DNA of 64,000 nucleotides from the NCBI RefSeq assembly GCF_921293095.1, contig NC_060252.1, positions 74,296,866 to 74,360,865 of the forward strand. The letters run 5' to 3'. This document shows positions 3,014-32,200 of the stretch, in pieces (positions within the stretch are counted from its first letter, which is position 1; each line of letters starts with the position of its first letter). The notes below the pieces were generated by a model. It ran no database searches, was not told the origin of the DNA, and saw nothing but the letters and a program-made list of their open reading frames with translations. This DNA is from Ischnura elegans (taxonomy: Eukaryota > Arthropoda > Insecta > Odonata > Coenagrionidae). The translations under genes and the position numbers were made by a program.

Positions 3014-6000
3014 ATGAAAGCTTTTATCAAGTGGATTTTACCTGCACTATTGTTATTTTTCACCTGCTGCCTCACCCAAGAAGACTATGATGAAGTTACT
3101 GTTACTTCGGAAGGGGTAGGTGGCTTGGTTTTTGCATTAAATTTCATTGGAAGTGAAGGTTTTGGGGCATGTTTGCCACGTTATGTGTCATCATACTTCA
3201 TGCATGTATATTCATGAGATTATTTCTGTTGCCTACAATTCACGATAGAAAGTGTAGACGGTAGGAGAAACGTTATTTTTTTAAATTCATACGAATATTA
3301 ACCGAGAATAATTGATTTTTAACTTGCCGTAATGTTTTTTTGTATATCTTATAATCCTAATATATGTGTATGCCTATTACCTTTGCAGGAAGAAAATGAA
3401 TCTGAGGAAGAGGTAACATACTCTAGCCCTGTCCCCTCTGGCAGAGTATATCTAGCCGAGTCATTTGATGATCCGCAGTTATTCAGGAAGAAATGGATAA
3501 TTTCACAAGCGAAAAAGGATGACACAGATGAGAACATAGCAAAATATGATGGTAAGGCGTTATTATATTTACGTATTTGTGGCAAAGTTGATCTTAGTTG
3601 CCAGCTAATATGGAATTATTATTCTCGAATTATATCTCTCTTTAGTTTTGGTTCCTTATCTAATACATCCAAGCGAAAGGTCATATCCACTGTTTCGAAG
3701 GTCTGGCATTTTACTTCATCGAGAGGTTTGCCTGTGTTGTGTGTAGTTCCTGAATGTCGTGACTAAAGTATTTGTGTATTTATATTTTTCTCGACCGCCG
3801 CTGTGCTCATCAACCCTATTGCAACCCTATCGCTGTTGAAAACTTTCATCATTAGCTGTAGATCCTGGTGTGGAATTTAGCTTCGCTCCAGCATGATCCT
3901 TTGGTACTGCGGTGCATTATGGTTAATGGTGAAGCACAGTTATTAAGGTTTAATTGTTTGGTTGCATGCAATTATTAAACACTTCAGTTTTGCAACTACG
4001 GTCATGTACTGATATTTCAGTTGCATTGTGGCATTGAAAATGAAGTTTTTGAAAGCATTGAGATTCCAATTTCTATAAAACTATGTCTGCTCCTCAGTTA
4101 ATGCAAATATGCGACCACTTTTGAAGAAGTGTTGACAGGGTCAACCAAGAGGTTCATGTTATGAATTTCATGCCACTCAACGTATGAAAATACCATTTTA
4201 ACCTCTTGACAGAAAAACAATGGTTGGTGTTGTTTCTTTGGTTTTTGATGATTATGTTCTCTCCGTATTTCTGGGTTCTTCATCTTGTGTTGATATGAAC
4301 TCAAACAACCTAGTCATTCTCTAAGTGGGGACTTGAGGTCAAATGCATTTAGTTGTAGTCATGGTACCTCATATAAACTTGATTGTCATCATAATCTTTA
4401 CTGGGCTACTAGCTATTTGGTGGTTTCCCCTAGCACTTTATGATGCATGGTGGAATGCGAATCCTTTATCCCAGTCCATATCCATAGCTGTTGGTGCTGC
4501 CTCATTGGCAACTTGTATCATTCACAAATAGCTGTGTTTCTCTTACTGTATGACATTTGTTTCCTCGGAAAGTTACTTTTATCTTGGTTCACCCATCAAG
4601 TGTTCTCCACAACAGAAGTGGCTTAGGATTTTTTTCTCTGTGGCTCTATTGTGCTCCTCTTTTTTGTTAATAGTGCATGCATAAGTATTTTGCCTCATAG
4701 CTATACAACCAATTAGAGAACCTACTATGCTGAGCCAAACTAGAGTGTTGCAAAGAACCGTGTGCTCCTCTTCATTGTTCATTGTGCATGTATACGTATT
4801 GAGGATGTATCTACCTAAGGCCTACCATACATGTTCCATCCCGGCCTCAAGGCCGGTCCTTGAGGCCGGAACTGCGCAGTTTGGCCGGAGCCTCAGGCCC
4901 ACCAAACACGTTCAGTTTGGCCTCAAGGCCTGGACTGTACAGTCCCGGACTGAAGGCAGAACTGACAGTGTGTGGCGACGCCTTGAGGCGGATTGTCGGC
5001 TGGACGGCGGCGGCCGGATGGGATAACAATGAGGCCCAGCCTCAAGGTTGCTTGGCCTTGAGGCCAGACCTTCCGGCCGACTGGATTCCCATTCGGGACT
5101 TCATTGGATTCCCATCCGGCTCTCCGGCCGACAATCCGCCTCAAGGCATCGCCACACACTGTCAGCTCTGCCTCAAGGCCTGGACTGACAGTACAGTCCA
5201 GGCCTTGAGGCCAAACTGAACGTGTATGGGAGGCCTAACCAGTGAGAGTGACACTACAGAAAAACCATACAGATGTGTTGCCAAGGGAACCTTTTTATTT
5301 ATGATTAAATTATCTTGATGTTGCATAATTATTCTTAAAGGAAACTTCAGTATACTGATACTTATCTCTTGTGTATGATCACCAGTTTTTTGTGTCAAGT
5401 GCAAAGCTCCTATTTGCAGCTCCTTGATATTGAAACCAAGGAGCATGTCCAAGGAAGGATGTGAATTAAACACTTCAAAGTGTTCTACAACTGCATACTG
5501 AATTAACCCATTCAGTTTTGATACGTACAAGTACTTCCTAATGGCTCGTATGTTTTGAAACTACTTTGTGGTCAAACAAATGATGTAATTATGAAGCACA
5601 TATTGCAAAGTGTTCAGTTATCAGTCATGTTTTTTCACCATGTTGCAGCCTAATCAGTCAATCAAAGGTTTTTCTGTATGCCTGTCTAGTACCTATGAGC
5701 ATTTTTGTAATTTCTCTGAATATCTTAATACAAGCCCTCTTTTTTCGGCAATGAAGTCTTTAAAATATGGAGTATAGATACTATTCCCTATCAATATTTA
5801 ACCTATGCTTGATGACAACTGGATCTAATCCATGGGCATACCCAGCGAGGGGTAGGAGGGGGCAGCTGCCCCCCCCCCCCTGAAGCAAAAATCGCAAATG
5901 TCTCTAAGGAAAATAATATTTTTTCAATCAAATGATTTTATAAACTAATTAAAAGCTATTACAGTTTCCCTAAAATTTTGATTTCAATCACCTTTTCCAT

Positions 6001-9000
6001 GCTTAAGTCTTACCTACAACTTGAACAACCATGGCTTGCCCTTCCTCCCTCCTCCCCCCTAGATTTCATCCTGGGTATGCCCTTGATGCCCTGACAATTC
6101 ACAATAAAAAAAGTGATTACATTTTGTGTATTACCTGAGCATTGAAATCAAATGGAAAGTGCCTCAAATGATTTAACCCAACATTTATAAGTTTCTTTCA
6201 ATATACGTAGGCATAGAATGCATCAGACATCCATTAAGTAATATTTATTATGTTTTGGTCTAAAACAGGATTTGGTTGCTGAAGTCTTGCCCAACAGTCT
6301 ATTGATGGTTTAAGTGAATTGAACATGTTAGTTGTTAACTAATAAATAGGTATAGTTGGAGTACATATGTTAATTTGCATACAATATTCATTTTACCTCA
6401 GCCAGTTTCAACATTCCTTTCCTTGGTATCAGAAGGATACTTTGGTAGTCTCTTGATATAGATGTAAATTATGCTTCTGATAATTATATTAAGTATCCAT
6501 TTGGTAATGAGATGAGGAAAGTTAAAATCAAGGGTGGAAAGTGACACTGTGCTGCTTTACTGATTTCTTGTAATGTATTGTCACATAGTCAATTTGTCTC
6601 TGATCAGTGGCGAATCCAGGATAGGGATGGCGGCTCTCCTCTCCTGTATGTAATCAACAAGTGAACAAAATAACAATGTTATCTCTAGTAGATTGGATAC
6701 TACATAGAGGCCATAACCAATTCGCTACCTTGGTTTGACAAGGTTCTAACCGACATTTTTGCAAAATTTGGTGTTTTCACTCAAAATAACTAAGTTTATG
6801 TTTCTCTATGTGTTCACCGGTTTTTATTCCTCTATGTAAAATAATAACAGATTTAGAACAGTGACAAAGTTCCAACTGCAAAAAGAAAAAACTAATATTT
6901 GGTGAGACAAGGTTCTAACTGCATTTTACTTATTTTATTACTCATATATAAACATGTAAAAAAATAAAATAAATAACATATTCTCTTAAAGTAATAATTA
7001 CTAGTGCATCTAGTGGATCACTAGTGTATGTGCCAAAAATCAAAAATAAATTCCTATTAATAATAGAAATAGAGCAGTTTAAAACTTTGACAAGGTTTTT
7101 CTCAAAACCAGCTGAAGGTCAGTTAGAACCTTGTCAAACCAAGGTAGCGTTTACACTAGATAAAATGGTAATAGCTCCTCTCTGGATCCGCCACTGTCTA
7201 ATTGGGCTTATTTTATGCAGTTGGTTTTTTCCGAGATCGATGACCCGATAAAGCAAAGCTGTTCACAGAAAAACTTACTGTGAGGAGAGTTCATTTGTTC
7301 ATGAACCCCTTAACCTCAATTGTGCTTGCTACAGCGTTTCTTGAGAGTCAGTTTTTCCCCCTAAGAAAACAATGAAATGGCCTCATGTATTTTCTTTCAT
7401 GAGAAAACAAGTGGTAGAATGCTTCAGGGACTCTATATAAAACTTAACGAGTAGTGTTTGTGTACACCATATTCCACGATAGACATTTTCATATAATGCA
7501 AGATAATTTGAATGAATGCGTATGAATATTTATTTATAGAACCTTTATTGCTTCTGCTCAAATGTTCAATCTCACATGTCTGTCTCTACGTTCAGGAGCC
7601 ATTAGAATGAACTTGAATGCGTGAAATTTTCTAAGGGTGAGATATAGGGATGAAAATAAGAGAGACTGGGGCAATATATTTGCTTATCTGATAGTAGTTT
7701 CTTAAGCATGCTGTAGAATAGATGTAATATTGGTGTTGTCTCATGTTGATATGTTTTTCATTTTTATTTTGTAATATATATTCATCCGTATCCCAGAGTC
7801 CTTGTTTGGCTCCATTGAAATTTACATTCAATTGATGTAAATGTATGTGTCAAGGCAATTAATAAAGTACAAAGTGAGGGTAAAAAACTGTAAAGCTTGC
7901 TGCTTTGCTCACTGTAACTGTTGTGTAGCCTATGGTAAGCAAATGGCCACCACTCCTTTGAACACATTTTTCAAGATATAATTTTTAATCCATTATTTTT
8001 CATGAGTTAGGAAATGTATCATTGTAAAATTTGAGTTTTTTAAAGCCTCTACGATGTCTTGATGAAGACACATCTAGGACGGGAAGTGAATCGATATCTG
8101 GGTAGCAATCCTTTTAGAGGAATGCAACCTTCATTTAAATTTTTTCTACAAGCTGTCCAATGATAGAGGAATTCAAGTACTTAAAGTGTTGTTGCTTTGC
8201 TCTACTTATGTGTAATTCCAATGCACTTATTTATTGCTGAGACTAAGCTGTTATTTTTGTATGAAAGGTAAGTGGGAAGTGGAGCCTGCTCAACGCCATC
8301 CATTGCGGGGTGACATGGGACTAGTGATGAAATCGAGGGCCAAGCACTCTGCCATTTCTGCTCACCTGGACCGACCTTTCCGCTTTGAGGACAAACCGTT
8401 GATTGTCCAGTATGAGGTGAACATGCAGGTTGGGCAAGAATGTGGGGGTGCTTACTTGAAATTACTTTCTCACGAAGAGGGCCCTCGAGGAGTCGACCTT
8501 CTTCACTTCAGGGACAAGACCCCGTACACCATCATGTTTGGGCCTGACAAGTGTGGAAATGATCACAAGGTAAGGAAAATATGTCCTTGCTCTGTGTTTG
8601 ACCTTAGTGAATGAGGCATGTTTATTTTTTGTGATGTGAATGGTTTTATCCCAGGGAAAAAACACGTTAGGGTATTCTTTTCTAAAGGCCTGTTTACACG
8701 GTACATTAACACGTACAGGTTAATGTCTAAATGTATGAACGCGAGAATGAACGCCAAAATGCACCATGTAACCACCCAACTTGTGCAAATGCCTGCACAG
8801 AAAATAGAACCTGTTCTAATTTGGTTCATGCATTCGTACATGTTCCGTTCCGGTCCACAAAAATCATTCACGCAAACGTACATTAACTCGTACGTGTTAA
8901 TGTATCGTGTAAACAGGCCTTTAGATTAGTATTTGGAGTTTAAATGCAATAAAAATTAAAATATCAGTGTGGATGCCTTGAATTTAACTTTTCTTGATCA

Positions 9001-12000
9001 GCAACATACCTCATTGATCATTATTATAATTTGATTGTATTTCGTATGAATAAAATCCTCTTAATTACAAGTACATATTTGCATCCCATATTACCAAGCC
9101 AATCAGAATATGGGACTCGCATAAATAAAAATATATTATGTCCCTGGTGTCGAGCATGCATTATCTTTGGTTTGAAATGGACTTTTCGCTTTCTTTTGCA
9201 GCTTCACTTCATCTTCCGTCACAAGAATCCTCTAAATGGTACTTATTCGGAGAAGCATTGTAGAAAGCCAAAGGATCGTGTTGAAGAGCCAATGAAGGAT
9301 AAGAGACCTCACCTTTACACACTCATTGTGCGGCCGGACAACTCCTTTGAAGTCAGAGTTGATCATAAGGTTTGGTTCATTTTACTAAAATAAATGTCAT
9401 ATTACTTATTTTATTGTTATTAATGGCTCTGCCAAATGGAAAGAGTGTCGAAAGAAACTTTTTTACATTTATTTTTGTCTGTGCACTTGATTACCAGAAA
9501 TGGTGCTTAACAAAAAAGAGGGTGGAACACTACAAAATGTAGAACTCTTAAGTCCTATAGTGAAAGAATGGCATAGTGAATTGAAACCTAAAAATTTTTT
9601 TCCTAAATTTTACATTGCCATGGTTGTAAATTGAGTTCTATTGAACTCAAAGGAAATCATCAATGTTGTACTTACCATTTTACAATGAACTTTGCATGAT
9701 AGTTAGTAAAACTTATCACTTATGTTAATGATGAAAGGCATTTGGGCTCGAATTTTCTTATTGCTTTAGACTAAATGCAAACAAACTAGCATGTGGACCA
9801 ATAAAAAACAACTCTGCAAGCTGGATAGGGATTCATTCACGATAATCGGCTGAAAACACTTGATCAGTGACTTTTTATTTATCATATTACTTGTATGGCC
9901 ACTGGAAACTAAATTTCTGGCTCATGCTGTCACAAGTTCTTTCGCTCTAATTTGAGGGTGTTGGTAGCTAGTTGAATTGGTTGTGTCCTGAAAGAACTGG
10001 GTGGAGTAGCGGAGATAAATTTGAGTTATTACAGGTTTGAGAAATTCAGGGAAATGATGGGGGACTTGAAATGGGTCAGGGAAATTAGAGACTTGTTTTT
10101 TGTGTCAAGGAAAATTTGTCATGATACTCAAATCAAAAGAACTGCAGCGGTGTCTGCTAGCGGAGGGATTGTGTCATTTGTGCAGAAAGATACAGTAAAT
10201 TTGCCTTTGGAAATTTGGAGTTTACCAGTTTCTTTTTTTATTGCAATTAAGTTAATAAAAGAAATTAAGTTTCTGCTTTTAGCATTTTCAAGACTTTTCA
10301 TTCTAAAGACCTTTTAATTTATGGTTGAGTTGACTTTTAAACCATTTTTTGACCTTTAATTGACTGAAATTAGCTTAACAAGTAACCAAATTTCTAGGTA
10401 TTAATTGTAAATGGATTAATTTTAGAAAGAATTAAATACATTTTTAGAATTTTGTAGTTAATTGGCTCTTTGACTGAAAATTTTATCTAATTATTGAAAA
10501 TGGAGAGTGAAAATTTCTGTGAAATTAGATTTTAGCCAGGGATATATCAGGGAATTTGAATTCAGGAATCTTGTTACAGCCCTTCAAAACCTAGTGCTAA
10601 TATTATATCTTGACTAGTTCATAGATTCAATTTATTCAATTTTGTGTAGTTAGGTATCTATGTTTGTACATTGATGTTAGGTATGAGAGCGTCGAAAATA
10701 ATCATGGCCTTTTTTTATACGATTTTGTCAGGTTGTGAATGAAGGATCATTGTTGGAAGATTTTAACCCCGAGGTGAATCCACCGGCAGAGATTGATGAC
10801 CCGACCGATTCTCAGCCAGTGGATTGGGATGACAGGGAGAAGATTCCGGACCCAGAGGCTGAGAAGCCTGACGATTGGGACGAAGATGCTCCGGCTCAGC
10901 TTCCCGATGAGAGTGCAGTGAAGCCTGATGGGTGGCTAGATGATGAACCTCAAATGATCCCAGACCCAACTGCAAAACGACCTGAAGACTGGTAAGTCAG
11001 CATTGACTAAAGAGTAATTTTTTAGTGACTATAACTGTTCTTTGATTGAATTTTATATAATATTTAGAAGTCCGTGAATTTCGCGAGACGCGATATCGCA
11101 AAATAACGCAGAATCGGTAATTAAAAACGAAATTTCGCGTTTATTGCGATTTTAGGTGGATTAGCGAAAAAATCTTATCTAAAGAGTCATAATCCATTGT
11201 TTAACGCTGCCGACGTTCATTTTCTCTATCTCATTACGATTCCAAGGTCAATTGGCTCGTTTTTTTGCATCCATTGTTTATGCTTTAAATAGAGTATGTA
11301 ATCCATGAATATTACAAAAGAGGATCCTCAAGTTGGCCTCTACATGTGTTATCAACCACCACGCATTTAAATGGGCTTCCAAAAGTCGCCACTCGCGTCG
11401 CTACCGGATAAATTGATCTGTGTTTCATTGGAAAATAAGGTATAATTAGTGGTTTTAACCAAAATTTGTATACATGATGATGTGATCTATAATATTCATT
11501 ACTTTTCAAAGCTATTCCTAGCAAATAAAAGCACTATACCACAAAATATTAGATAAAAGTACATACCTACTTATGACAGTCAGACCATGACTGGGGTGAG
11601 CTGGAAGTGATTTCCAATTTATTCAGTGTTTTTTTTTATCCTCTCCATTATTCTGGCCTTCCTTATAAATGATATTATTATTTTTTTTTAATACCAGGGA
11701 TGATGATATGGATGGAGAGTGGGAGGCACCATTGGTACCTAATCCCCTGTGTGAAGGTGCCCCTGGATGTGGAGAATGGAAGAGGCCAATGGTACCTAAC
11801 CCAGCGTATCGCGGCAAGTGGAGACCTCCAATGATTGATAACCCAGCATACCGTGGCAAGTGGGCACCAAGAAAGATCCCTAACCCTGACTATTTTCATG
11901 ATGAACACCCATTCAAGATGACACCAATCGTAAGTATTTTTTTTTCTTATCTAAGCCTGGATTGAGCCTCACATAGTTAAAGACTTTGCCACCATAAGAT

Positions 12001-15000
12001 ATTATTTCCCACATGGAATGGGTCCTTCCAATTGTAATGCGAGGTATTAGTTATATTCTTGGAGGCCCAGTTGCTTGGTACATTAACGTCTGCAAGGCAA
12101 TGTCCAAATGCAAGAATGAATATGACAACTTATCATGTAATCATCAAACTTGTGTAAAGGTTTGAGCAGAAATTTGAACCTGATCTAATTTGGTTCATGC
12201 ATTCACACATGTTCTGTTACAGTCCACCAAAATCATTCATTCATCTATGCATGAACTTGTACATGTTAATGTGTATAAACAGGCCTTCAGAATTAAATTG
12301 GACACTATTATTTTCAACCATCAGTGGTAATCCTCAGACTCTAGGAAATTCAAGTATTTAATTATACACTATCAGAGCATATTTACACCATGTTGTAATG
12401 TGAAAATTAATATTTTGTAGGGTTTTGCATTTTTACGTTCAAGGTGATGATGAATGTTTGTTTTGTTTTTTATTTTACGTTGCCAATATAGAAAGTGATT
12501 GTTGTGCGGCCTTGGGATATAGAAGACGAATAAAATAGTTTAAGACGTAAAGAAGACTTTTTTCGTTTTTTGACAGATTATGAGACTTAAACACTAAGTG
12601 TTGATGCGAAGCGAAGTTTTTCTTTTGATGGTGTGAACGGCGAATACGTTTGAGGTTAGAAGAAGTGAACCCCATAATTGTTCTTTGTAAGTTCGGAATC
12701 ATCAAAAATGGCGGAATAAAAGAAGACGAATAAAATAGTTTAAGACGTAAAGAAGACTTTTTTCGTTTTTTGACAGTATTAACCCGTATGAGTTTATATC
12801 TTAATGTATGAATGAATTCAGTGGACCAGAATGGAATGTACAAGTGCATGTGCCAAATTAGAACAGTTTCCATTTTCTGTTCATACATTTACACAAGTTG
12901 GATAGCTACATGGTGAATTTTCATGTCTATTCTTGTATGTAAACATTGACTTGTAGACGTTAATTTATCATGTGACCAGGCATTTAGCTGCTGTATTAAA
13001 CTGCATAAGGAATTCTGTAGCATGAAATAATTTGCCCCAACATTTCTTTTAAATGGTTTGAAACTGTATGAATACTCGGACAGTAAAATGCAGATTACAC
13101 GGTAATCAGTCCCTCACACCCTCTTCTTCCCTCCTAGCCCTCATAGCCCCTCTCACATTTCTCGGTTCACATTCTCAATGCTGTGTTCAAGGGCACAAAA
13201 GGAATTCATTTTACCCTCTCATAAAGTTTTCTTAATGCAACCAATTTAGCTACTGTCATGACTCCACATTGATGAAGAAATGTGGTTGAGATTTCAATGT
13301 AAAACCTTGAAGATGTTGGAAATCGTTGAAAAAAACCTGGATATTGGCTTGAATTTCATTTTACATAGTCAATAAATGTTGTGAAATAGGGTTTAGAATC
13401 CTGTGAGCTGGCCACGGCATAGGGTATGCTACCCTCACTTTGGTGCTGTTAATGTTAATCTTACTTCTCCCTTGTTTATAGGTGTAGTGAATTTTGATTT
13501 TAGAAGGTTAATGTCATTAGTTTTATTTACAGTGTAATTTTCATAAAATGTTTCAGCTTAGTCTTTAATGAATAGTATATGTGAAATTTGTATTTTACTG
13601 TATTTTCCAGAGTGCAGTTGGATTTGAGCTGTGGTCCATGTCAGACTTGATTCTGTTTGACAATATCTTGGTCACCGATGATTTAGCAGTTGCTGACCAA
13701 TGGGCTGCTGATACTTTTGACCTCAAAAAGAAGAAATTGGACCAGGATACTGTGAGTTAATGCAAATTTTATTTGTTGGTTGTAATCCATGATTACTTAG
13801 CAATAGTTTAGCTCATTCATTTTTATTTAAAGTTCTATCACAATAGAAATAAAATTTATGATTTGACTATTACATGATAAGGTAAAATTAGTGGTAGTAA
13901 CAGAGTACAATTGCATGTTTAAGTACTGCTATACATGTATATAAATTAGAAATGGGTCGAATAGCAGATTTCTCGAACTCGAATATCGAATTCAAATATT
14001 AAATCATTGCTCGGATATTCGAATACCTCGAATACTAGAATTTTGCAAGGCATATTAAACGTATGTTTCCTCTTCTATTTCACTTGATGAATGTATAAAT
14101 AAAAAGTGGAATCTCGATCTATCGTTTTTCAAGGGGATGGACGAAAAAAATCCATGAATGCGGGAAGGTTTGACTAGGTTGCCTATGCAGCAGGAAACCC
14201 AGGATTTTGACGAGTAATTGTGATTTCCTTTAAAGGATTCAAAGAGGAATTTCGCTGATTAATGGAATATTTTAATTTTATGGAAACAACTAGGCATATA
14301 TTTGATTCAACTAACTTCTCTTTCAAATATTCTAAGGGGACACACCACCTCGCGAAAAATGATTGCATGCCGTCTCGGCATTTACACTGCTACGATGGAT
14401 TTCTGTCTGATGTATACATTCTTATCTACCAAACGCCATTTCAGCGGCACGCCCATCTGATACTCCCCTTCATCAAACTTCTTATTTTCAACAGGTAGCT
14501 CGCTTTACCCCCACTCCTTCTGTCAAGTGCTAGCGGAAAATCTGAGGCGTTTTGCAAAATACACGCGCTACTCCACCGGATTTTCTTTCTTTCAATTATT
14601 TTCAGTCCATCTTTGGAAGTTCTCACTTTTTGAAACTTTTGATTAATGGTCTTCGTAATACGAAGCCTGCACAAGCTGGGGCCTTAGGTTTTATTTCGAA
14701 GAGGAGGAAAGCGTTGGAGGAGGGGCAGTGGGCTGATGGATGGAGGGGGTAGCAGATATTGGGAATTGTGCTACGTAGTTACTATCCCATGGCACTGAGG
14801 TTCTCCTGGTGGGGAAACCAGGTTTTTCGGATATTTTTTCACCCGATCATTTTTAGTTCCCCACATTGAACTCTTTTCACCGCTATAATCCACGAATTTG
14901 ATGTAGTTCGTCAACTTGCCTAAAACGGTGCTGCATACACTAAACGACTAGAGTTCTCTACATTTTTCCAAGTCAACTACCAACGATGTATGTGCGACAG

Positions 15001-18000
15001 TGAATGATGCTAAGTTCAAAGTAGTCGATGTATTCGAGATGGTACCTTTCGCATGACTATTCGAGACCTCGAATATCGAATACTTTCTAGTATTCGAGGT
15101 ATTTGAGTATTTGAGTATTCGAGTATTCACAGATACTATTCGCACATCTCTAATATAAATATAAGTACTATTGCTTTTTTATTTTCAGTTTTGATTTTTA
15201 TGATGATTCTTTGATTAATATATCAACTCTTTCACTGTGGTCAAACTGCCAAGACTTAGCAAGCCCTATGTTGTGAAAAAATGAACAGTTACCCATGCCG
15301 GCACGTAGGAGCTATGCTCAAGTCAACCGGGCGAATGTAGCTGCTATGTTTACAGCAGCAAAAGGTTGATTAGTATATGCAGGCTATTCCATTCTAAAAT
15401 TCATCCATATCTTAATGTCAATGCATGACTTAATGTTCATTATACTCAGTAAACTGCAAATGTTAAGGTATTTGTATACTGAAGATGTTTGCATGTATAT
15501 GTATTTTTCTGGTCCCAATATTAAAAAGCTACCTCTTGAAAGGAACACTTATATCAACTGGTAAAGGTCCTGAAAACCTGTTCCACTGTGTTCCTTTAAA
15601 AAAACCCTGTCAGCATCAAATTTATTCTGTGTACATGGGAAATTTCTTGGGTTGCCGATATATGTTGAAAGTATTTTTTGCCAATCTTTCAAGCATAATT
15701 TTCTGTGTGAAATTATAGCTTGCATCCAGATTTCATAGGAATATGAGAAATGGATGATAGGGCAGAACTAATGCTCCTGCCAACTTTAGTTACATACGTA
15801 TTTCATTACTGTGAAAACCTCTCAGGGGTTTTCCATGTGAAAATCTATTTTCAAACTTCAGGTATGTACAGTGGTGGATCTATGGGGGTGGGGCTAAGGG
15901 GGCTATAGCCCTCCCCTTGTATCCAATTTACACCAGATAGAATGGCAATTTTTTCCGACCCCCACTACTGCTGGAATATTTAACTGCACTTTGTCCCCCC
16001 CCACCCCCCTTTGTCCCTATCTTGGATCCACCTCTAGGTATGCATATGATGAAATTTTGATCCCATTAAGTATAATGTAAGTTCAAAATTTCATCATTAA
16101 TATTCCTCTTTCTGTAATTGGGTGGATTTTAATTTTTTTTTTTTTTAGGTCAAAGGAGTTAAATTGATACCTCCACTGCACAAACGCTCAACAATCGCCC
16201 ACCGAATCAAATCCGCTCCCTGGTTCCGCTCCGCCCAAGATGAGTGGATTTGATTCGATGGGCGATTGTTGACTGTTTTTGCAGTGGAGGTATTGAATAG
16301 TCTGATCATAGTTTTGCTGCCTTGTTTCTTTTCTTACTATGTACTTGTCGTCTTAAATTTTCTATTATTTCTCCATTTCAGGTGAATAAAATCGCTGCCT
16401 AAAATTAAATGCCTCACCTTTATTCTTGTTTTTTTGTTATAATCTTGAACTAAAATCTTTATCACAGAGCTCCCTCTGGGGCCGCATGCTTCGGGCCATG
16501 AATTATAAACCAGGCTGGTGGGCCCTCTACTTCCTCTACTGCATGGTCCCTGTCTCCATTTATGTTTGGTACTTGTGGAGAAGGGCGTCAGAGGTAAAAA
16601 CTTCATCTGATCATGATTGTAATGCTTGTTGAATACCATCCTCTACACTTTAGGAGGGCCTGATCATGCGCATCATCTCCTATACCAATGCCCACCCATG
16701 GCTATGGGCCCTTTACCTTGTCGTCGTAGCTCTGCCCCTAGTCCTGCTGCTCGTCTTTTGCTGTAGCTCTTCTCAGGTAAGCTCGCTTGCTCTGCTGTGC
16801 TCCCAAATTCATGTATCACTGCTAGTGAGGTTTCCAGGCATTATTGGTCATGTGAAATGGAAATATTTTATGTTAATACGTATGGTATGGTATTTGGAGG
16901 AGGCGAGCGACAGCTGAGGTCATTTGCGCCATGAGGGTAGGGTATGGAAGGAAGGGTGGAGAGAAACCCGGCGTCGGCATTAGCCTGCTCTTAACGAAAG
17001 GCACCAATGGGACCACGGCTTAACGTCCCATCCGACGGACGGAGTGTTGTGCTTGAAATGTCCTCCACACAACATTCAAGCAGGGATCGGGCAGTCTCTG
17101 AAAATTCTCTGCCGCTGCCGGGATTTGAACCCGGGCTCACCGGGTGGGAAGCCAACACTCTAGCCACCACACCAACCCGATCCCCCTGTTAATACGTTCA
17201 CTGCCACTTCGGTCATAATGACCGAAATGGGTACTTCATCTTCTCGCCGCTTCAGTCAAAATGACTGAAAAATGAGTCACTTTTTTGGCCTTTCATTGCA
17301 CGTCGTTGGTCGCTGCTACTTCGATACCCTATGTATGACTTTACGTGGTGCATGTAGCTGAATGCACACAAAAACTCAAATGGAAAGGACCCAAGTATTA
17401 GAGCGAAAGGAAAAAGAAAAACACTTTGGTGCAATGGGTGAACTCATCTATAACTCCACGGCAGGGAACGTGTTAACATGACGGATTATCTAGTTCTAAA
17501 TAATTTCATCTTTCTCATTGAGCTAAATTTAAGGATGAGGATACCAAGTTACCCATACTAGTGGCTAGTATGTAGTCTGTCATGTTGAACCTTTGCTTGA
17601 AGTCGGTAGCCAATCCATCTTTGGCATTTTGAATATTACAATGAGTTACAAGAAAGTCAAAGGTCATGATAAGATATTTTTTCAACTTTCATATTCTTGT
17701 TTGTTTTTTGGACCCACAAATTACTTCTTGATAGTTTTACTTGGCTCTCTAGATTTTGGTGGCTAAATGTTGGAGTTAGGTGATAGGTTGGTTTCTATTC
17801 TTGTATCCTCCCTGAGACCTCCAATAGGATGATTTCTTATGAAGGATTTGTGAAGAATCATGTATTGCCAGTTAATACTTGCTCAAAGTATTGTAGATTC
17901 CTCTTTCTTAGCTTATTACACATTTGATATTGTTAGAATTGTAGGTATTCAAGTACTCTGACAAGGAGTATGGGTACAGTAATAGGTAGGTATTTATTTT

Positions 18001-21000
18001 TAACTTATCGGTGGTTATATTTCTTGTGAGCTGTGTATCATTTGGATGGGATTGCTACGTTCAATTAGGATGATCACAAAAATATCATCATTCAATTTAT
18101 TTCCGGGGGGACTCCCCTAAAAGTTGTCAAATGGTCTAAAAATTATATTGGCAAAGTTACAACTCAGCACGTTAATGTCAACTTGAGGAAAAACTTCAAT
18201 GTTTTGTTTAAAATAATATTTTTTAGAAACTCTAACCTCGATTAGGCAAGTGTAAACGTTATCATGTTGAGTTGAAACTTTTCCAATACTAGTTTTAGAT
18301 GATTTAGTAGCTTCTAGGAAGGGTCCCCTGATAGATATTATGTTAAAAAAATCTTGTGTAGTTTGTCACTACCCTAATTTTTTAGGGTCTATAAATTATC
18401 ATTTCTGTTCTTTTCATTTCATAGTTGGGATAGAAATAACAAAGTTAAGCTACTAATTTTCTTAAATGATTAGTATGTGGGAAGTAAGGAAATATGGGTG
18501 CTCTTATAGTGTGCCATTTGGTTGGCAAGTGTCAGTTTTGGTAGGGTCAAAACTGAATTAAGTATCACCATAGATAGTGATTCAAGGGGTGGTAGCAGAT
18601 GAAAGGAATAATCTACTTGGATTTTGGAGATTTGTTTAGAATAAATTAAAATGCAGGAGCCACAGCTCACTAAAAACAAGAATATGGAAACAATAGGGAA
18701 TCAAGAAAGGCACAGAACAGAATATCACAAAATCTTCAGGGTATTCCATGACATTGTAATTGGGTAGATCACTTGGATATAAAATTGCAAATTCATTAAA
18801 TCGATTTGTTGTGTTGAAGGGAAAGATAAGTTACTACAAAAATATTCCTCATTCATCATTTCTCTGGTTAGCTCAAATAAAAAAATAAGTGGTAGTCGTT
18901 ACAAGGCAGGCGAAGATCGAAGTAAAAAATAACAAGAAACACCAAATTTAAAAAAATATACGATTTTAAAGCCCTCAAAATTCAATTTTATTTATCCTAT
19001 TGATAAATATAGTGGCATTAGTTGGGAAGGGCTCAAAAAAAATTCCCTCCGTTAAACCATTCCAATCCTCTATCCCCCATGCAGAAAATTCTCTGGCATT
19101 CTCTCCCACCATCCATTAATTGATGCTCAATAAATTTGACACTAGCCATTAGCCCTGATGAGGTCTCCAGCATAGGAGAGAAAAAAATCAACCATTTTTA
19201 AGTATCAACGCGAGTTGCCCCCTTAATCCACCAATAATTGACTAGGAAAAGATCGTGCACCTCTGTGTAGAAGACTTTTTACCTTTTTTTTTAAAACAGG
19301 GCAGGTGAGGAGAGATTAAATGTCGCGTGAGATATCATTAAACATTGTGGAGACAGGGACTTCCTTGGCAAGACTTCCATGTAATTGTGTTATTTATGCA
19401 GAAGGTGGGGTAATTGTGGTAAGAAGATTGGAAATAAATTTGTTACATTGGTGTGTGTGAAGCAAGCTCACGTCTAAACACATTGAGAAGGCAGTCTGTT
19501 AATTTCGTATAAAAGAGGTTTGCAAGGGGTGCATATGGAGAATTGCATCATGGTTTTGATGGCTTGCTTGTGAAAATGGTGTTGACTTTTTCAAGACTTA
19601 TCTCCAGTCAGAAGGTAATATTTTTCTAGTCAGCTCATCTTATGTACGTATTTTTCCTTCAATTGAAACTACATATATGACATTCTGCCCACCCTTCTCT
19701 TGACCTCTCCTCTACCTATCGTCTACCAATCAATAACCTAATAATAATAAATTTTTTTGTCCTGCAATTTGCACGATATGAATATAGGACATGTCATGTA
19801 AAGGTCATATATACACTAAAAATTGATTATTTACAAAGAAATACATTTTCATGACAAAGTATCAAGTAAATAGTTTTCGTATAAATAGAGGCAATTTTTA
19901 TATCAGGGCGGTCAATAGTCCTTCAGCGTTCTTGGGGTCTGATGTTATACACTCGTTTCCCTTCAAAGGGAATTAGGTTTTCTGCAGTTTAGAAGGATAA
20001 AGATCTATCATAATTATCGTCAATGTATCAATATCATTAATTAATTATTATTATAATTATCATTAATTATCATCAATTGATAGATGATAATTAATTATTA
20101 TCTATCAATTTCTTATTAATTATAGTCTTACGATTTATCGTCTATACTCTAATTGGGTGGTTCAACTGTCTTCCTACCTACAGTATTAAAAAACTTTACT
20201 TTCAAAATATGACTAGCTATGCCTACCCAGTGTTCGATTTTCTGGAAACCATGATTGTTGTATCAGCTTTTTTCTAAATTATGTTGTTTGTTAGTATGAT
20301 TTATTTATTCAATTTGAAAGGCCACTTGTGGCTGTTTGTGAGTTGTCATCATTTGTCAACAATCCTAAGATTGGTTTTACACAGCTCTCCATTCCTCTCT
20401 TCCATCTACTAGTCTTTTTATAGCGACGTATTTCTTCTCTTTTACATCCTTTATAACCTTTCCGATATAACTCATTTGGAGCCGTCCCTTGCCCTTTCAC
20501 CTGTCCTTCCACGAATGTTTTCATCAGGCCATCATGTCACTTAATGTGGCCAACTAAGTTTTATTTTATTAAATCAATAAAATGAATGAAATATTTAATT
20601 GTCAACTTCAGGAGTCTACCGCAGACAATAAGAAGACTGATGGAGTGACATTGGATGCGGAGGGGAAGGAGGATGGGGGTGAGGATGAGGAGGAGGAAGA
20701 TGGAGTGAGTGGAGGTGAACGTAACAAGGACGAGGACGATGAGGAGGACGACGAAGAGGAAGAGGGCGGAGAGGGGTCCAAGGGGCAGGAAAGTGACACC
20801 AAAGATGATGGCAAGAAGGGAGACGAGGGTGAAGAGGTGAGGTTGAAAAGCCTTTATATCCCTCCCCATTCACTACTGTTTACAGTGAAACGTATGATTT
20901 AACACTTTCCCGGTGAAAGAATGATTAAACTTTTGTCGGGTTTCCGCAGGGGTCAGAAAATCTAAGATCGCTGATGGAACCTGAAACGTCGGAGCTCATA

Positions 21001-22967
21001 AGATTTTCTTACCTGTGTGGAAACCCAAGAAAAGTTTATTCACTCAAACGTCTGGTTTCAGGTTTTTGTCTGAATCTTAAAAACCTGGAAAACCTGCAAA
21101 TGTCAGTAAATTTTTGAGGCCACTAAAAAGTTAGGGAAATGTCATTTTAAAAAAGTGAAAAGTTAGTCAAAAAAGAAAGCATCAGTAAAAAAATTTTGAC
21201 TGTCCCCTCTATTCAATAATTCTTGTTCAAAACATTTATTGTAGTTTTTGTGATTGATTACTCATGGTGGAGCTTTCCAAAGCATACACAGGGGTGCCGA
21301 CTCCATGGGGCCTGAGCCCCCTCATCAATTCGTAATGGGAGTGAGGAAAAAATATGCCTGGCTAATCGATTTTCCCCGGAATGTCCAGTTATCGAGAGTT
21401 GAGTTTTCAGAGCTGTAATGTTTTATGATTCTTCTAAAATGCTCTAAAAAACTTAAAAACTGACTATTTATAAAATTTCCTAGGACAAGACTCCGCTATG
21501 GGCCACCCAATATTTTTATAACTCGGCACCAGCATACGAACTCAGATTTTGCCCTTTTTTTAAAATGATTTCTCCAATGTTATGAGTTCCTTACCAACAT
21601 ATCATCATAACTGGTCAACAATCCTAATATGTATGTATTGGTTCGATGCAACTCTACAATCAATTCTCCTATCAGCTAATCTTATCTTACCTATATATTT
21701 CTTCTCTTTCACAGCTCATGTTAAGTCTAATCCTTGTTTCTTTTGTTTATGAACAAGAGTCATCTAGTATCTTAAAAACATACAAGAAATTAGGTTTCCT
21801 TTCATTGTGTACTTGTAATGCACAAATACCATTTGTATTTACTTCATCAAGGTTATGCATTTATTCTTTAGAATTATTCATTATCCAACCATTTCTCTTA
21901 ATTGGTGTTTCCCAACACTAGAAATTAGTGGACCTCTCTGTCAGAAATAAATCATGTATTTACCACCCTCATTCCCCCTTGCAGCTTTCTTCGGCATATA
22001 TTTTGTGACCAAATTTAAAGACCGTTTGTCAAAGATTTGTTTTAGGGCTCATTAAGAATTAATTAATTCATACTTTCCTCATTCCGTTCTTTATCATGTT
22101 TTACTGTGAAAGCATATTGTTGCAAGAGCTGTCAGAAAAAAATCTCTTAAAAATCAGTGTTATGAAATATGAATGTATTATCACTCCATGGCCATGTTTA
22201 CAGTATTTTTTGTGAGAAGCAGTAAAAAATGATTTTTGCAAAATTTATTTTTACTCAAGATCATGTGCACTTAAAATGACATGACCACGTCTTCAGTATT
22301 TTTTGTGAGTGGCATAAAAAATCATGTTTGCAAACTTTTAATTTACTCAAGATAATGTGCTCTTGAAGTGACATGATATTCAATGCTTTACATCTTATGC
22401 TGCTGACTCATTTTACCTTTGGTTCTACCTTTGGATAAGAATACTGTCCTGCACATTGATGTATTACTATTGCACTGATTTTTTGATTCACTGAGTTAAT
22501 CTAGGCTGCAATCAATGATATTAAGGCCTAGTTACACGGTGCATTAACACACATGAGTTAATGTCCTTTTGCATGAACGATTTTTCTGGGCTTGAACGGA
22601 ACATGTACAAATGCATGAGCCAGATTAGAAAGGGTTCTATTTTCTGTACATGCATTCACACAATTTGTGTGGTTACACAGTGCATTTTTGTGTTCATTCA
22701 TTTGTTCATGCATCCAACATTTACTTGTACCTGTTAATAATATATAATCATTGGATGACAAAAACTTTGCTATCAGGGAAAAGTTCATAAATATTGTCCC
22801 GTACTTCTTACTGGTCCATGCCTACTGTTGCAGTATTTTTTTTCATGTGAGTTTATCCTTATCTTATCTTCTGTTTGCTATGCATTTTCTAGATTGAGGA
22901 AGCAGATGTTACAGAGGTTGGTCCTGAGCGTTCTTCTCCCCGACGACGGCGTCCTAGAAAGGAGTGA
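3014..22967 (+). CDS. Cnx99A: Calnexin, ER membrane lectin chaperone (spliced)
   Basis: Calnexin holds monoglucosylated glycoproteins in the ER for folding with ERp57-like partners. Coding exons: 3014-3115, 3389-3551, 8268-8569, 9202-9369, 10732-10991, 11698-11929, 13611-13751, an alternative transmembrane exon (16468-16593 or 16654-16776), 20612-20836, 22893-22967; all junctions keep frame, giving about 596 residues, normal for the family. It has a signal peptide (residues 1-21), a globular lectin domain with the conserved CGGAYLKLL and CGNDHK cysteine motifs, and a P-domain with four type-1 repeats (xPDPxxxKPDDW, exon 5) followed by four type-2 repeats (GxWxxPxxxNPxY, exon 6). The 4+4 arrangement separates it from calreticulin (3+3). 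After the lectin C-half come the membrane segment, a Glu/Asp-rich cytosolic tail and the terminal [10 protein letters not shown], matching the calnexin ER-retention tail. The symbol is that of the Drosophila orthologue. ATG at 3014 is the first in frame and starts the signal peptide. Confidence 0.96.
4819..5235. mobile_element. Foldback MITE, TAA target duplication (PIF/Harbinger-like)
   Basis: A 417-bp GC-rich palindromic element flanked by TAA (4816-4818 and 5236-5238). The ends are GGCCTACCATACATGTTC and, inverted, GGCCTCCCATACACGTTC. Inside, long complementary arms contain repeated blocks of the form GGCCTCAAGGCC and GACAGTGTGTGGCGA. TAA/TTA duplications and GGCC-type ends suggest a non-autonomous PIF/Harbinger relative. 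Located in the second coding intron of calnexin; the apparent open frames inside it are by-products of the palindrome. Confidence 0.8.
5834..6085. mobile_element. Degenerate TIR element
   Basis: Ends read GGGCATACCCAGCGAGGGGT and, inverted, GGGCATACCCAGGATGAAA. Next to them are G-runs (left) and C-runs (right). It has the appearance of an old non-autonomous DNA transposon in the calnexin intron; no clear target duplication. Confidence 0.5.
6605..7196. mobile_element. hAT-like non-autonomous element
   Basis: Terminal inverted repeats CAGTGGCGAATCCAGGAT and CAGTGGCGGATCCAGAGAG, a typical hAT end. Several inverted or direct copies of TTTGACAAGGTTCTAAC lie inside. The flanking 8-mers do not match well, so the insertion is old or the target duplication has decayed. 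No transposase reading frame. Confidence 0.65.
8686..8920. mobile_element. MITE family A, copy 1
   Basis: A 235-bp palindromic element with termini AGGCCTGTTTACACGGTAC and, inverted, AGGCCTGTTTACACGATAC, about 35 bp of near-perfect inverted repeat. It sits in the calnexin intron between exons 3 and 4. Four other diverged copies lie near 12063, 12508, 22524 and 32497. Here the flanks are TAA and TTA rather than an exact direct repeat. Confidence 0.8.
12063..12286. mobile_element. MITE family A, copy 2 (diverged)
   Basis: Begins AGGCCCAGTTGC and ends with inverted AGGCCTGTTTATACAC. Internal blocks such as AATTTGGTTCATGCATTCA match copy 1. Older and more diverged; located in the calnexin intron after exon 6. 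Confidence 0.7.
12508..12983. mobile_element. MITE family A, copy 3, split by a 256-bp insertion
   Basis: The left end, GGCCTTGGGATAT at 12508-12520, continues at 12777 with TATTAACCCGTATGAG, and the right end is near 12983. The interruption (12521-12776) is the direct-repeat element described separately, and TAT is present at both junctions. Confidence 0.6.
12521..12776. mobile_element. 256-bp element with identical 56-bp terminal direct repeats
   Basis: Positions 12521-12576 and 12721-12776 are identical over 56 bases (starting AGAAGACGAATAAAATAG, ending TTTTTTGACAG), separated by 144 bp of unique sequence. The flanking sequences diverge abruptly. TAT occurs immediately before and after, consistent with a 3-bp target duplication in MITE A copy 3. 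The overall plan resembles a miniature LTR element (TRIM/SMART), but the repeats do not begin TG and end CA. Confidence 0.6.
13947..15152. mobile_element. Non-autonomous hAT-like element with 8-bp target duplication
   Basis: A 1206-bp element flanked by exact ATATAAAT copies (13939-13946 and 15153-15160). Ends are TAGAAATGGGTCGAATAGCA and, inverted, TAGAGATGTGCGAATAGTA. Subterminal TCGAATA/TATTCGA repeats occur at both ends. An 8-bp duplication is the hAT signature. No transposase frame was seen. It lies in the calnexin intron between exon 7 and the transmembrane exons. Confidence 0.8.
15877..16035. mobile_element. Short degenerate hAT-like element
   Basis: Left end CAGTGGTGGATCTATGGGGG; right end, inverted, CTAGAGGTGGATCCAAGATA. 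G-rich left and C-rich right parts are complementary. No clear target duplication. It lies about 430 bp upstream of calnexin transmembrane exon A. Confidence 0.45.
16168..16292. mobile_element. 125-bp palindromic MITE with TTGA target duplication
   Basis: Near-perfect inverted repeat with arms starting TACCTCCACTGCACAAACG and continuing through AACAATCGCCCACCGAATCA. It is flanked by TTGA at 16064-adjacent position 16164-16167 and at 16293-16296. It sits 175 bp upstream of calnexin transmembrane exon A, and its transcript would form a strong hairpin there. Confidence 0.8.
16468..16593 (+). other. Calnexin alternative transmembrane exon A (no Cys-Cys)
   Basis: A 42-codon exon in phase 0-0 with acceptor at 16466-16467 and donor GTAAAA at 16594. 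It encodes a short linker, then [13 protein letters not shown] and a hydrophobic segment ending in WRRASE. It aligns with the next exon (16654-16776): both read G..-R-..-Y..-W-x-A-L-Y-...-P then hydrophobic residues. It therefore looks like a tandem exon duplication. Unlike exon B it ends in basic residues and lacks the juxtamembrane Cys-Cys pair. Either exon joins 13751 and 20612 in frame. Confidence 0.75.
16654..16776 (+). other. Calnexin alternative transmembrane exon B (canonical, Cys-Cys)
   Basis: A 41-codon exon in phase 0-0, acceptor TTTAG before 16654 and donor GTAAGC at 16777. It encodes [15 protein letters not shown] followed by hydrophobic residues and VFCCSSSQ. This closely resembles the vertebrate calnexin membrane segment (RPWLWVVY...FCCSGK), including the juxtamembrane Cys pair that is palmitoylated in mammals. 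It is separated from exon A by only 60 bp, a spacing that would hinder splicing of the two exons together. Confidence 0.85.
16882..17186 (-). mobile_element. tRNA-derived SINE (tRNA-Gly-like head)
   Basis: On the minus strand the element opens with GGGATCGGGTTGGTGTGG, a box A-like segment GGCTAGAGTGTTGGC, an anticodon-loop-like TTCCCAC (CCC, Gly) and box B GGGTTCAAATCCCGG. A conserved SINE body follows (containing GGATGGGACGTTAAGCC) and a 3' tail with ATACC repeats. An 11-bp target duplication, TGTTAATACGT, is present at 16871-16881 and 17187-17197. This is a SINE and not a functional tRNA gene. It is inserted in the edge of a piggyBac-like MITE within a calnexin intron. Confidence 0.85.
17193..17472. 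mobile_element. piggyBac-like MITE with TTAA target sites
   Basis: TTAA at 17189-17192 and 17473-17476 flank inverted ends TACGTTCACTGCCACTTC and CACGTTCCCTGCCGTGG. TTAA duplication with this end type is typical of piggyBac-derived MITEs. The SINE at 16882-17186 inserted at its left end, duplicating the TTAA. Confidence 0.7.
22201..22374. repeat. Diverged tandem duplication, period about 93 bp
   Basis: Two copies beginning CAGTATTTTTTGTGAG (22201 and 22294) share most of their length, including ACTCAAGAT.ATGTGC.CTT. Located in the last calnexin intron. Confidence 0.65.
22524..22742. mobile_element. MITE family A, copy 4
   Basis: Begins AGGCCTAGTTACACGGTG after TTA and contains the family blocks GGAACATGTACAAATGCATG and TTCTATTTTCTGTACATG. 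The right terminus is lost after about 22740. It lies in the last calnexin intron. Confidence 0.7.
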
Positions 22968-29200: not shown

Positions 29201-32200
29201 CCCTCACCCCCGCCCTTTCAACTAGTCCTTTTCCTTCCGATAGATGTCCTCACAGTCACTTGTGTACTTTGCGTATAAATGTATGATGCATGCAAGATCA
29301 GTCACCTGACGATGTAACCAAGTTACGAAACCCGGGTCTTGCCCATAATTAAATAACAGTGAACCTTACAAAGTTTTATTTCCTTACTTCCATTATAAAA
29401 ATACCATTGAATTTCTTTTAGGGATGGAACTCCTCCTGGGACCGCTGTGTTGGTGAAGATTATGTCCTCAAGGATACAGACGATAATCGACGACTTCAAA
29501 GAACACTTTCAGATAAAGCACAGCTGCAGCTGTGAGTGATAATACACTTAGAAAGCTTCCTTTGTATTTTTGGATGTCTTGTGTGATAAGATTGAGTTGG
29601 GAAATGAAAGTTGAAAATGGCGTCTTAACATGAGTTTTGCAGTACATATTTATAAGGTCTCATTTTGTGACAAAGTTTCACCCTAAGAATTTGGTTCAAG
29701 GAATCGAATACCCAAAATTGAGCAGAATATGACTGTTATTTGGATTATGATGAGGTATTGAGTAATCCTTACATTTTTTTCAAATTACTAGACCTAAACC
29801 TGTTTTATTCATTGATGAATTTGTCAGAGTAAATTTTCTTTTCTTTGACTATCTCTATCACTTACATCCTGGGTTAAATTTTCTCTATATTTTCATTTTT
29901 TATAGGATATTTTTATGAGATATAGCAGTGAATACCTCGATATCCATGAAGGGAAGTAGAAATTTTTAACTTATTTAGGTCAAGAATCAAAATTATTTAT
30001 GAATAATATGTATAGCTAATTAAATTTAAGCAGGAAATTCAGAAGACTTAGCTATCAAAAAATTTGTTCAGGTCATCATTCGTATTCATGTATTCACCGT
30101 AGCTGAAAGGTTGGTTATATTAATGCATTGAAGTGTCTTACAGAAAGCCTCATACAAGAATTGATTAAATTGATTTGCTAATTGAAGAATATACTGTAGG
30201 AAAGGAATTTTGGAATAAATTCGGAATATTATAGAAATATTGTGTGTTACATATTTGAAAATAAGAGGCAAATTTTGATAAAATAAAAGAATAATTGGAA
30301 AATGGACAGCTTTGAAAGACTAGTATTTCACCTAAGGTGCTTTTGATGCTTCATTTTTTACATGGTACCGCAGTAAAACTAGGTTGTAAGTTTCTTTGTG
30401 AATTATTCTACTTCAAAATCATGCTCTCAACATTTTTTTAATCGCTTAAATTGTTTTAATGAGAGTTAATCCATTAAAAATATTGGATATGAAGAAAATT
30501 CAATCAGGGCTGTGTGCTCTTGTCATAGAATCTATTACGTAATTTTTTCATCCAAACCATGGTAATTGCTAGAAATTGTTGACTGATAAGGAAATAACAT
30601 GAAATAGCAAGGCTAAAAGACATCATGTAGTCTTTAATGATTACACATTGTACTTCAATGCTTGAAAAATTTTCCAAAAGATAGATTTGATTGGCATTAT
30701 TGCCTACATTTCTCATTATTTCATGCTATTCCTTGCATGGCAAATTCCTGCTATTTGTGCTTCATTAGTTCTTTTGTTGTCTTTCATTTTTGTGGATGAT
30801 TTAAATCAAGCATTTTGCTTATACCCTTTATTCATTGTTTGCATGCTTTGTGTAATTTGAAAATCTTGTCTGGGAAGGTGTATCCGTAAAATTGAATTTA
30901 CTATGTAGAGTTATACAAAATATAACGTTGGGATTGTGTGACGAAGCAAAGCTCTATGCTTCCTTGACAAGCAGTTTGTTGTTTGATATTCAAGTCAAGG
31001 TTTATCATGATACTCCAAGTGTGAATCTTAAGAGTAAGTTTTTATGTGATGTCTTCTTGGATTTAGTGGACATAGATATCCTTTTAAGCTGCCAGTGGCT
31101 CACAAAAATAGAAATAATAGTTGCTTACTACGTAAATAATAATAATTACTGCTTAAAAATTTCTTGTATTTCTTTTCATGGAAGTAGGAGAAAAATTGTT
31201 GACCATTTATCACTACTACTATCTTAGTATTCATAAAAATCTTTATGACTGCACCATTAATTTTGACCAGGAGACTTTGAGGTTTTTATGACTTGATGGG
31301 ATTAAATGATGTTTTCAGTGAAGCATACAGCTTTGCTTTTCAATGATAGTCATATGAAATTTATGCTTAGATATGTTTATCATAGAAGTAAGTGCTGTAT
31401 GAAATAAGTTGGCATCCATTTTACCACAATGATAAAATAATTTTCTTAGCCCAGAAATTATTCCTCAAAAGTTATCTTCTCCTCTAAGTATCTAAGAGCT
31501 GAGAATAGCTTTTAAGTTTTAATGTGCTGACTACAAAATTGGAGTTTTGAAAATATCCCTTGTGTAAATATTAAATTCATATTATTTTATCATATTAGTT
31601 TTATTATGTTATGGTACCATTAAAGGGTCATTGGCAAGCAAATGCCATGTTAACAATGCTTATATGAGACGTAATGGAAAAAAATGTGATACAGAATTTT
31701 TTTCTTACTCTTTGAGTAAAACGGTTCTGACCACTAATAATCAAATGTAGGGCAGATAAAAATTGGGAAAATTCGCTTTTTTTTATATCAATTCACATTT
31801 TTAAAAAATGCCAACTTGTCTCAATACTGCAACATTCCTTGTACCATTTGTTGTGACCTTCTCATCCAATGAAAATGAAGTGTTTTCCAGGTCGTCTTGC
31901 GTGGGAGCAATACGACGACCTCAAACAATCTGGAGATAAGCAGACAGACTGAGCAGCTGCTGGAAAAGGTGCTCAAATTCATATCTACCCGCATGCAATT
32001 CCAGGCGCGAGAGGAAGCAGCAGGCAAGGCGAAGGAAGACATCCGACAGGACGTCGGACGGGGAGGGTGGCGTGGGGGGTGGGGGGGGCACGGTGAAGCG
32101 GCAGCGGAGGAGGGGTAAGAGGCGGGCAGGGGGAGGGGCACGTGGTGGCGGGAGGGGTAGCAGGGGAGGGGGCGGAGGGGGGGTGGATGGGGAGGCTGCA

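What the first reader, a model, noticed from the sequence alone, without database searches (positions are those of the whole stretch)
16468..16776. Duplicated calnexin transmembrane exons, only one with the palmitoylation-type Cys-Cys
Two exons 60 bp apart have the same phase, align along their length (G-x-x-x-R...Y...W-x-ALY...P) and each supplies a complete membrane segment between exon 7 and the acidic tail. Using both would add a second membrane pass and put the ER-retention tail in the lumen, so they are most likely mutually exclusive. Exon B ends in FCCSSS, like mammalian calnexin, whose two juxtamembrane cysteines are palmitoylated and steer it to the translocon or mitochondria-contact sites. 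Exon A replaces them with WRRASE. Splicing could therefore switch palmitoylation and ER-subdomain placement of calnexin.
Basis: partly seen in the sequence, partly recalled or inferred. Interest (0 to 1): 0.85.

Follow-up and report, generated by a model that had tools for sequence, protein, structure and literature searches.

The report
Calnexin gene with two membrane-anchor exons
An animal gene for the protein-folding helper calnexin carries two different versions of the exon that anchors it in the membrane, only one of which has the cysteine pair that is fat-tagged in mammals, so splicing could choose between two kinds of calnexin; whether cells really do this is untested.

Summary
A calnexin gene lies at 3014-22967 (+) in 11 coding exons. 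Exons A (16468-16593, 126 bp) and B (16654-16776, 123 bp) lie 60 bp apart, both phase 0-0, each encoding one membrane span. All four splice outcomes stay in frame. Exon B is the ordinary anchor (calnexin chain 8rjc_9, E 2.7e-7) with FCC at the mammalian palmitoylation site. Exon A keeps P-x-x-W-x-x-Y-x6-P in register but ends LWRRASE. Homology of A is supported, not by every test: its ungapped score with B is reached by 6 of 20,000 block shuffles; identity peaks at second codon positions (22/41) and is at chance at third (10/41); yet A alone finds no calnexin in the PDB. Most likely this is an old exon duplication spliced mutually exclusively, with B the likelier default. Loss of the cysteines in A is fact; the cellular consequence is inferred. 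No transcript, no second species and no palmitoylation data for this organism were available. The literature listings I saw name no such calnexin exon pair, but supplementary gene lists were out of reach.

The parts
3014..3115 (+). Exon 1: start codon, signal peptide, phase 0 end
3389..3551 (+). Exon 2, lumenal domain
   Evidence: Pfam PF00262 covers residues 57-430 of the product
8268..8569 (+). Exon 3, lumenal domain
9202..9369 (+). Exon 4, lumenal domain
10732..10991 (+). Exon 5, P-domain repeats
   Evidence: end corrected by one base
11698..11929 (+). Exon 6, P-domain repeats
13611..13751 (+). Exon 7, end of lumenal domain; donor shared by A and B, phase 0
16468..16593 (+). Exon A: alternative membrane-anchor exon, 42 aa, no juxtamembrane Cys, ends LWRRASE
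16594..16653 (+). 60-nt interval between A and B; only YTNAY branch-site matches lie 11 and 16 nt from the A donor
16654..16776 (+). Exon B: canonical calnexin membrane anchor, 41 aa, FCC at the palmitoylation site
20612..20836 (+). Exon 8: acidic cytosolic tail with KKTD motif
   Evidence: KKTD aligned
22893..22967 (+). Exon 9: basic C-terminal RRRRPRKE and stop

Best explanation
An ancestral calnexin membrane exon was duplicated in tandem long ago. The two copies are spliced as alternatives (mutually exclusive), giving two single-pass calnexins of 597 (A) and 596 (B) residues with the same lumenal domain and the same cytosolic tail. B, with the fuller donor and pyrimidine tract, is the likelier default and makes the ordinary, palmitoylatable calnexin. 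A needs help to be chosen and makes a calnexin held by a Trp/Tyr-rich span with Arg-Arg at the cytosolic face; lacking the two juxtamembrane cysteines it cannot be dipalmitoylated there. By the mammalian precedent it should be shorter-lived and less bound to the ribosome-translocon complex unless its new span does that job otherwise. Shown: gene model, frame, homology, missing cysteines. Inferred: use of A, exclusivity, default B, functional consequence.
For: Gene model and frames. Exon B = known anchor. A-B and A-anchor similarity beyond shuffles and beyond all other open AG..GT segments. Second-codon-position identity 22/41 against 12.5 expected (7 of 20,000 shuffles), third positions at 10 against 12.6: pattern of protein-level constraint after saturation of silent sites, hence an old duplication. 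A joined to its neighbours has calnexin as best of 3 PDB hits at E<=10, gapless over 51 residues, E 0.081. A and B are 55% G+C in surroundings of 33-37%. Splice sites: A has the poorest pyrimidine tract of 10 acceptors (9/17; B 13/17) and a 6/9 donor match (B 8/9). Mammalian precedent: both cysteines palmitoylated by DHHC6 (PMC9913998, passages); unmodified calnexin half-life about 5 h, doubly modified about 45 h (PMC4765739, passages); membrane span provisionally placed on TRAP-gamma, dipalmitoylation cited as crucial for binding (PMC11186639, passages).
Against: No transcript or second species. A alone finds no calnexin in the PDB at E<=10. tblastn A-B is weak (E 0.067). Codon-usage scoring does not tell A or B from open intron windows: 639 and 660 of 2290 windows score as high; B fails too, so the test is uninformative. 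A is less hydrophobic (best 19-residue mean 1.48 against 2.95), and 155 of 1001 open segments reach 1.45. 2290 of 29,576 intron windows of that length are open by chance. A's donor is not unusually weak: 4 other exons also score 6/9 and two 5/9.
Confidence: 0.65

Rival explanations
1. Exon A is a relic: a duplicated exon no longer spliced in, still open by luck.
For: Poorest pyrimidine tract of 10 acceptors; no transcript; open windows of this length occur in about 8% of intron positions (2290 of 29,576).
Against: A has AG/GT at both ends in the right phase, high G+C, the anchor signature in register, and third codon positions saturated against B while second positions are kept: a neutral copy of that age would probably have lost these.
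Confidence: 0.15
2. A and B are both included, giving a two-pass calnexin with its tail turned into the ER lumen, or A is a cassette exon added to B in some transcripts.
For: The A+B form is in frame, 638 residues; a 60-nt intron is usable in some animals (recalled).
Against: It would put the cytosolic tail and its basic C-terminus on the lumenal side; the only consensus branch-like sites in the 60-nt intron lie 11 and 16 nt from the A donor, too near for splicing by general knowledge; non-consensus adenines further down cannot be excluded.
Confidence: 0.07
3. A and B are alternative anchors, but what matters is the span itself (packing against TRAP or other partners, lipid preference) or the new RRAS sequence as a kinase site, not palmitoylation.
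For: Most residues of the span differ, and A is rich in Trp and Tyr while W18, Y21 and P28 are kept. RRAS fits the recalled PKA consensus.
Against: Di-cysteine loss is the difference with a known effect in mammals (PMC4765739 and PMC9913998, passages). A four-letter kinase motif beside the membrane is weak evidence. Not exclusive with the best explanation.
Confidence: 0.3

Closest known systems
Calnexin (Pfam PF00262; PDB 8rjc chain 9)
   Same: Lumenal lectin and P-domain, single membrane span, acidic tail, basic C-terminus; exon B keeps PWLW...ALP...FCCS.
   Different: This gene carries a second membrane exon without the cysteines.
Tandem duplicated exon substitution events (PMC9741552, passages seen)
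   Same: Adjacent related exons of equal phase, single homologous region exchanged; that paper counts 236 events in human and 154 in D. melanogaster, and reports enrichment in transmembrane proteins.
   Different: Neither calnexin, CANX, Cnx nor 'chaperone' occurs in its main text; its supplementary gene lists were not readable here. The exclusivity of the present pair is unproven.
Insect ryanodine receptor mutually exclusive exon pair (PMC6026295, passages seen)
   Same: An ER calcium-handling membrane protein with an old alternative exon pair, found in 21 of 26 species by that paper.
   Different: There the pair lies in a SPRY domain in the cytosol, not in the membrane anchor.

Membership tests
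Calnexin | Calreticulin-family lumenal domain | tested here: met
   PF00262 E 1.3e-167, residues 57-430, run on the A isoform
Calnexin | Membrane span followed by acidic tail and basic C-terminus | tested here: met
   Sequence of both isoforms; exon B to 8rjc_9 E 2.7e-7
Calnexin | Type I topology in the ER | not testable with these tools
   -
Palmitoylatable calnexin anchor | Two adjacent cysteines at the cytosolic end of the span, exon B | tested here: met
   FCC aligned to FCC of 8rjc_9
Palmitoylatable calnexin anchor | Same, exon A | tested here: not met
   Aligned residues are L36-W37; the only Cys (25) is mid-span
Mutually exclusive tandem exon pair | Adjacent exons of equal phase and similar length | tested here: met
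   126 and 123 bp, both 0-0
Mutually exclusive tandem exon pair | Homology of the two exons | tested here: met
Mutually exclusive tandem exon pair | Never together in one transcript | not testable with these tools
   No RNA data held
Mutually exclusive tandem exon pair | Conserved across species | tested here: inconclusive
   No animal genomes held; viral and prokaryote contig scans found no relative

The most novel reading that the evidence does not exclude
Calnexin's lipid tag, known in mammals as a reversible enzymatic switch, is here hard-wired by splicing: exon B gives a dipalmitoylatable, translocon-bound, long-lived form; exon A gives a form that cannot be palmitoylated there and carries an Arg-Arg, possibly phosphorylatable (RRAS), membrane edge, so that tissues choose between two ER placements of one chaperone.
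Probability: 0.3. Interest if true: 0.7.

Novelty: new member of a known kind. Interest (0 to 1): 0.5.

Why it matters
If both exons are used, this is a natural pair of calnexins that differ only in the anchor. It would let one test, without mutants, what palmitoylation and the membrane span contribute to calnexin's lifetime and its binding to the translocon, a contact so far only provisionally assigned in structures (PMC11186639, passages).

Tried and rejected
Codon-usage log-odds trained on the other exons of the gene: uninformative, since exon B scores as low as A. Search for further copies of the anchor exon in the window by tblastn and by scanning open AG..GT segments: none convincing. 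Scans of viral contigs and prokaryote genome contigs for any calnexin with flanks: pattern matches but no confirmed relative. Rfam (0 matches) and tRNA (0). RNA folding of 16450-16800 inside: no structure that I could interpret without relatives.

Literature: ten searches. Eight of them were aimed at calnexin isoforms or exons; two searches listed 20 of 29 and 20 of 70 papers. From the listings and the passages opened I saw no calnexin exon pair; PMC10228280 speaks only of transcription start and 3' end choice of 'Calnexin (Calx)' in fly, PMC9374236 and PMC6855806 gave nothing on isoforms, PMC3303723 does not contain 'calnexin' or 'Cnx'. The fly list of 154 genes in PMC9741552 is in a supplement that I could not read, so a fly counterpart is not excluded.

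Full report
Gene. The window holds a calnexin gene on the + strand, 3014-22967, in 11 coding exons counting both A and B. The product matches Pfam Calreticulin (PF00262, E 1.3e-167) and calnexin chain 8rjc_9 (E 2.3e-125, a query made of several exons without exon 4). Over exons 5-7 it is 66% identical to that chain. The product starts with a signal-peptide-like stretch and ends RRRRPRKE.

The two exons. Exon A (16468-16593) and exon B (16654-16776) have AG/GT borders, begin and end in phase 0, and are separated by 60 nt. The four possible products, with A, B, both or neither, are 597, 596, 638 and 555 residues, each with a single stop at the end. So frame does not constrain the choice, and nonsense-mediated decay could not remove unwanted combinations.

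Exon B is canonical. Alone it hits calnexin 8rjc_9 at E 2.7e-7, with PWLW, the ALP of the mid-span kink and FCCS aligned. Passages of PMC9913998 state that in mammalian calnexin both juxtamembrane cysteines are palmitoylated by DHHC6 and that a proline kinks the span near its midpoint.

Exon A is a relative, at some distance. Ungapped it shares 9 of 41 residues with B, score 37; full shuffles never reach it (0/20,000), block shuffles 6 of 20,000; on identities alone 43 and 213 of 20,000. Against the 8rjc span the local score is 53 (0/5000 full, 2/5000 block). Gapped A-B similarity is weaker (12 and 64 of 5000), and tblastn of A over the window ranks B behind one unrelated hit (all). Among 1001 open phase-0 AG..GT segments of the window, A forms come next after B forms (53 and 50; next 39). 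Codon positions 1, 2 and 3 match at 15, 22 and 10 of 41; only position 2 stands out (7 of 20,000 block shuffles; position 1 2322, position 3 17,671). That is what an old duplication under protein-level constraint leaves. A alone finds no calnexin in the PDB at E<=10; joined to its neighbouring exon residues, which include the shared KKTD, calnexin is the best of three hits at E 0.081. In a few positions (G5, M7, A10, L23, V29) A agrees with 8rjc where B does not, so A looks like a sister of B rather than a late copy of it; this rests on five residues.

Both are membrane spans. The best 19-residue hydropathy means are 1.48 for A and 2.95 for B, at the same place in the product. A is rich in Trp and Tyr. 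At the cytosolic edge B reads VFCCSSSQ and [10 protein letters not shown]: lipid-attachment cysteines against Arg-Arg. A's only cysteine is mid-span.

Splicing. A has the poorest pyrimidine tract of the 10 acceptors (9 of 17; B 13) and a donor matching CAGGTAAGT at 6 of 9 (B 8 of 9); other donors of the gene range from 5 to 8, so A's donor is ordinary and its acceptor is the weaker feature. In the 60-nt interval the only YTNAY matches lie 11 and 16 nt from the A donor, which would hinder A-to-B joining; other adenines could serve. The smallest other intron of the gene is 273 nt (from the exon ends). Hence B as default, A regulated, and exclusion by crowding are reasonable but inferred.

What did not help. 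Codon-usage scoring fails for both exons. A and B are 55% G+C against 33-37% in the three flanking introns, which fits coding sequence but is not proof.

Meaning. In mammals non-palmitoylated calnexin has a half-life of about 5 h and the doubly modified form about 45 h (PMC4765739, passages); its span is provisionally placed against TRAP-gamma, with dipalmitoylation cited as crucial for that contact (PMC11186639, passages). An A-form calnexin should therefore behave like the cysteine mutants unless its altered span compensates. This is inference from mammals.

Novelty. Tandem exon pairs chosen by splicing are a known kind (PMC9741552, passages). A pair in the calnexin anchor did not appear in the listings of the searches named under Tried and rejected; unread supplements and genome annotations may hold it. 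I file it as a new member of a known kind, of moderate interest, higher if the palmitoylation switch is shown.

Noticed in passing
16167-16293: Inverted repeat with 52-nt arms (90% complementary, 23 nt between), 174 nt upstream of exon A; no second copy in the window. Looks like a small hairpin transposable element; effect on splicing of A unknown.
   Followed up: partly
16583-16593: Exon A ends in RRASE; RRAS fits the recalled PKA consensus, next to the membrane edge.
   Followed up: no
54721-55743 (-): Long open frame with GIDE (E 3.8e-17) and RING (E 1.8e-15) domains: MUL1-type E3 ubiquitin ligase (gene name recalled).
   Followed up: partly
8705-8969, 12077-12291, 12778-12987, 22473-22738, 32492-32662: Dispersed repeat in both orientations, 73-78% identical, several copies inside calnexin introns.
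   Followed up: partly
14010-15115: Two 31-nt inverted arms 1044 nt apart with GAATATTCGAG-like sequence in intron 7: probable transposable element.
   Followed up: no
63091-63999 (+): Open frame of 303 codons running to the window's end with a sub-threshold zinc-finger match (zf_Hakai, 18 bits against a cut-off of 26).
   Followed up: no
31940-32494 (+): Open frame of 185 codons rich in Glu, Asp and Gly, no Pfam match.
   Followed up: no
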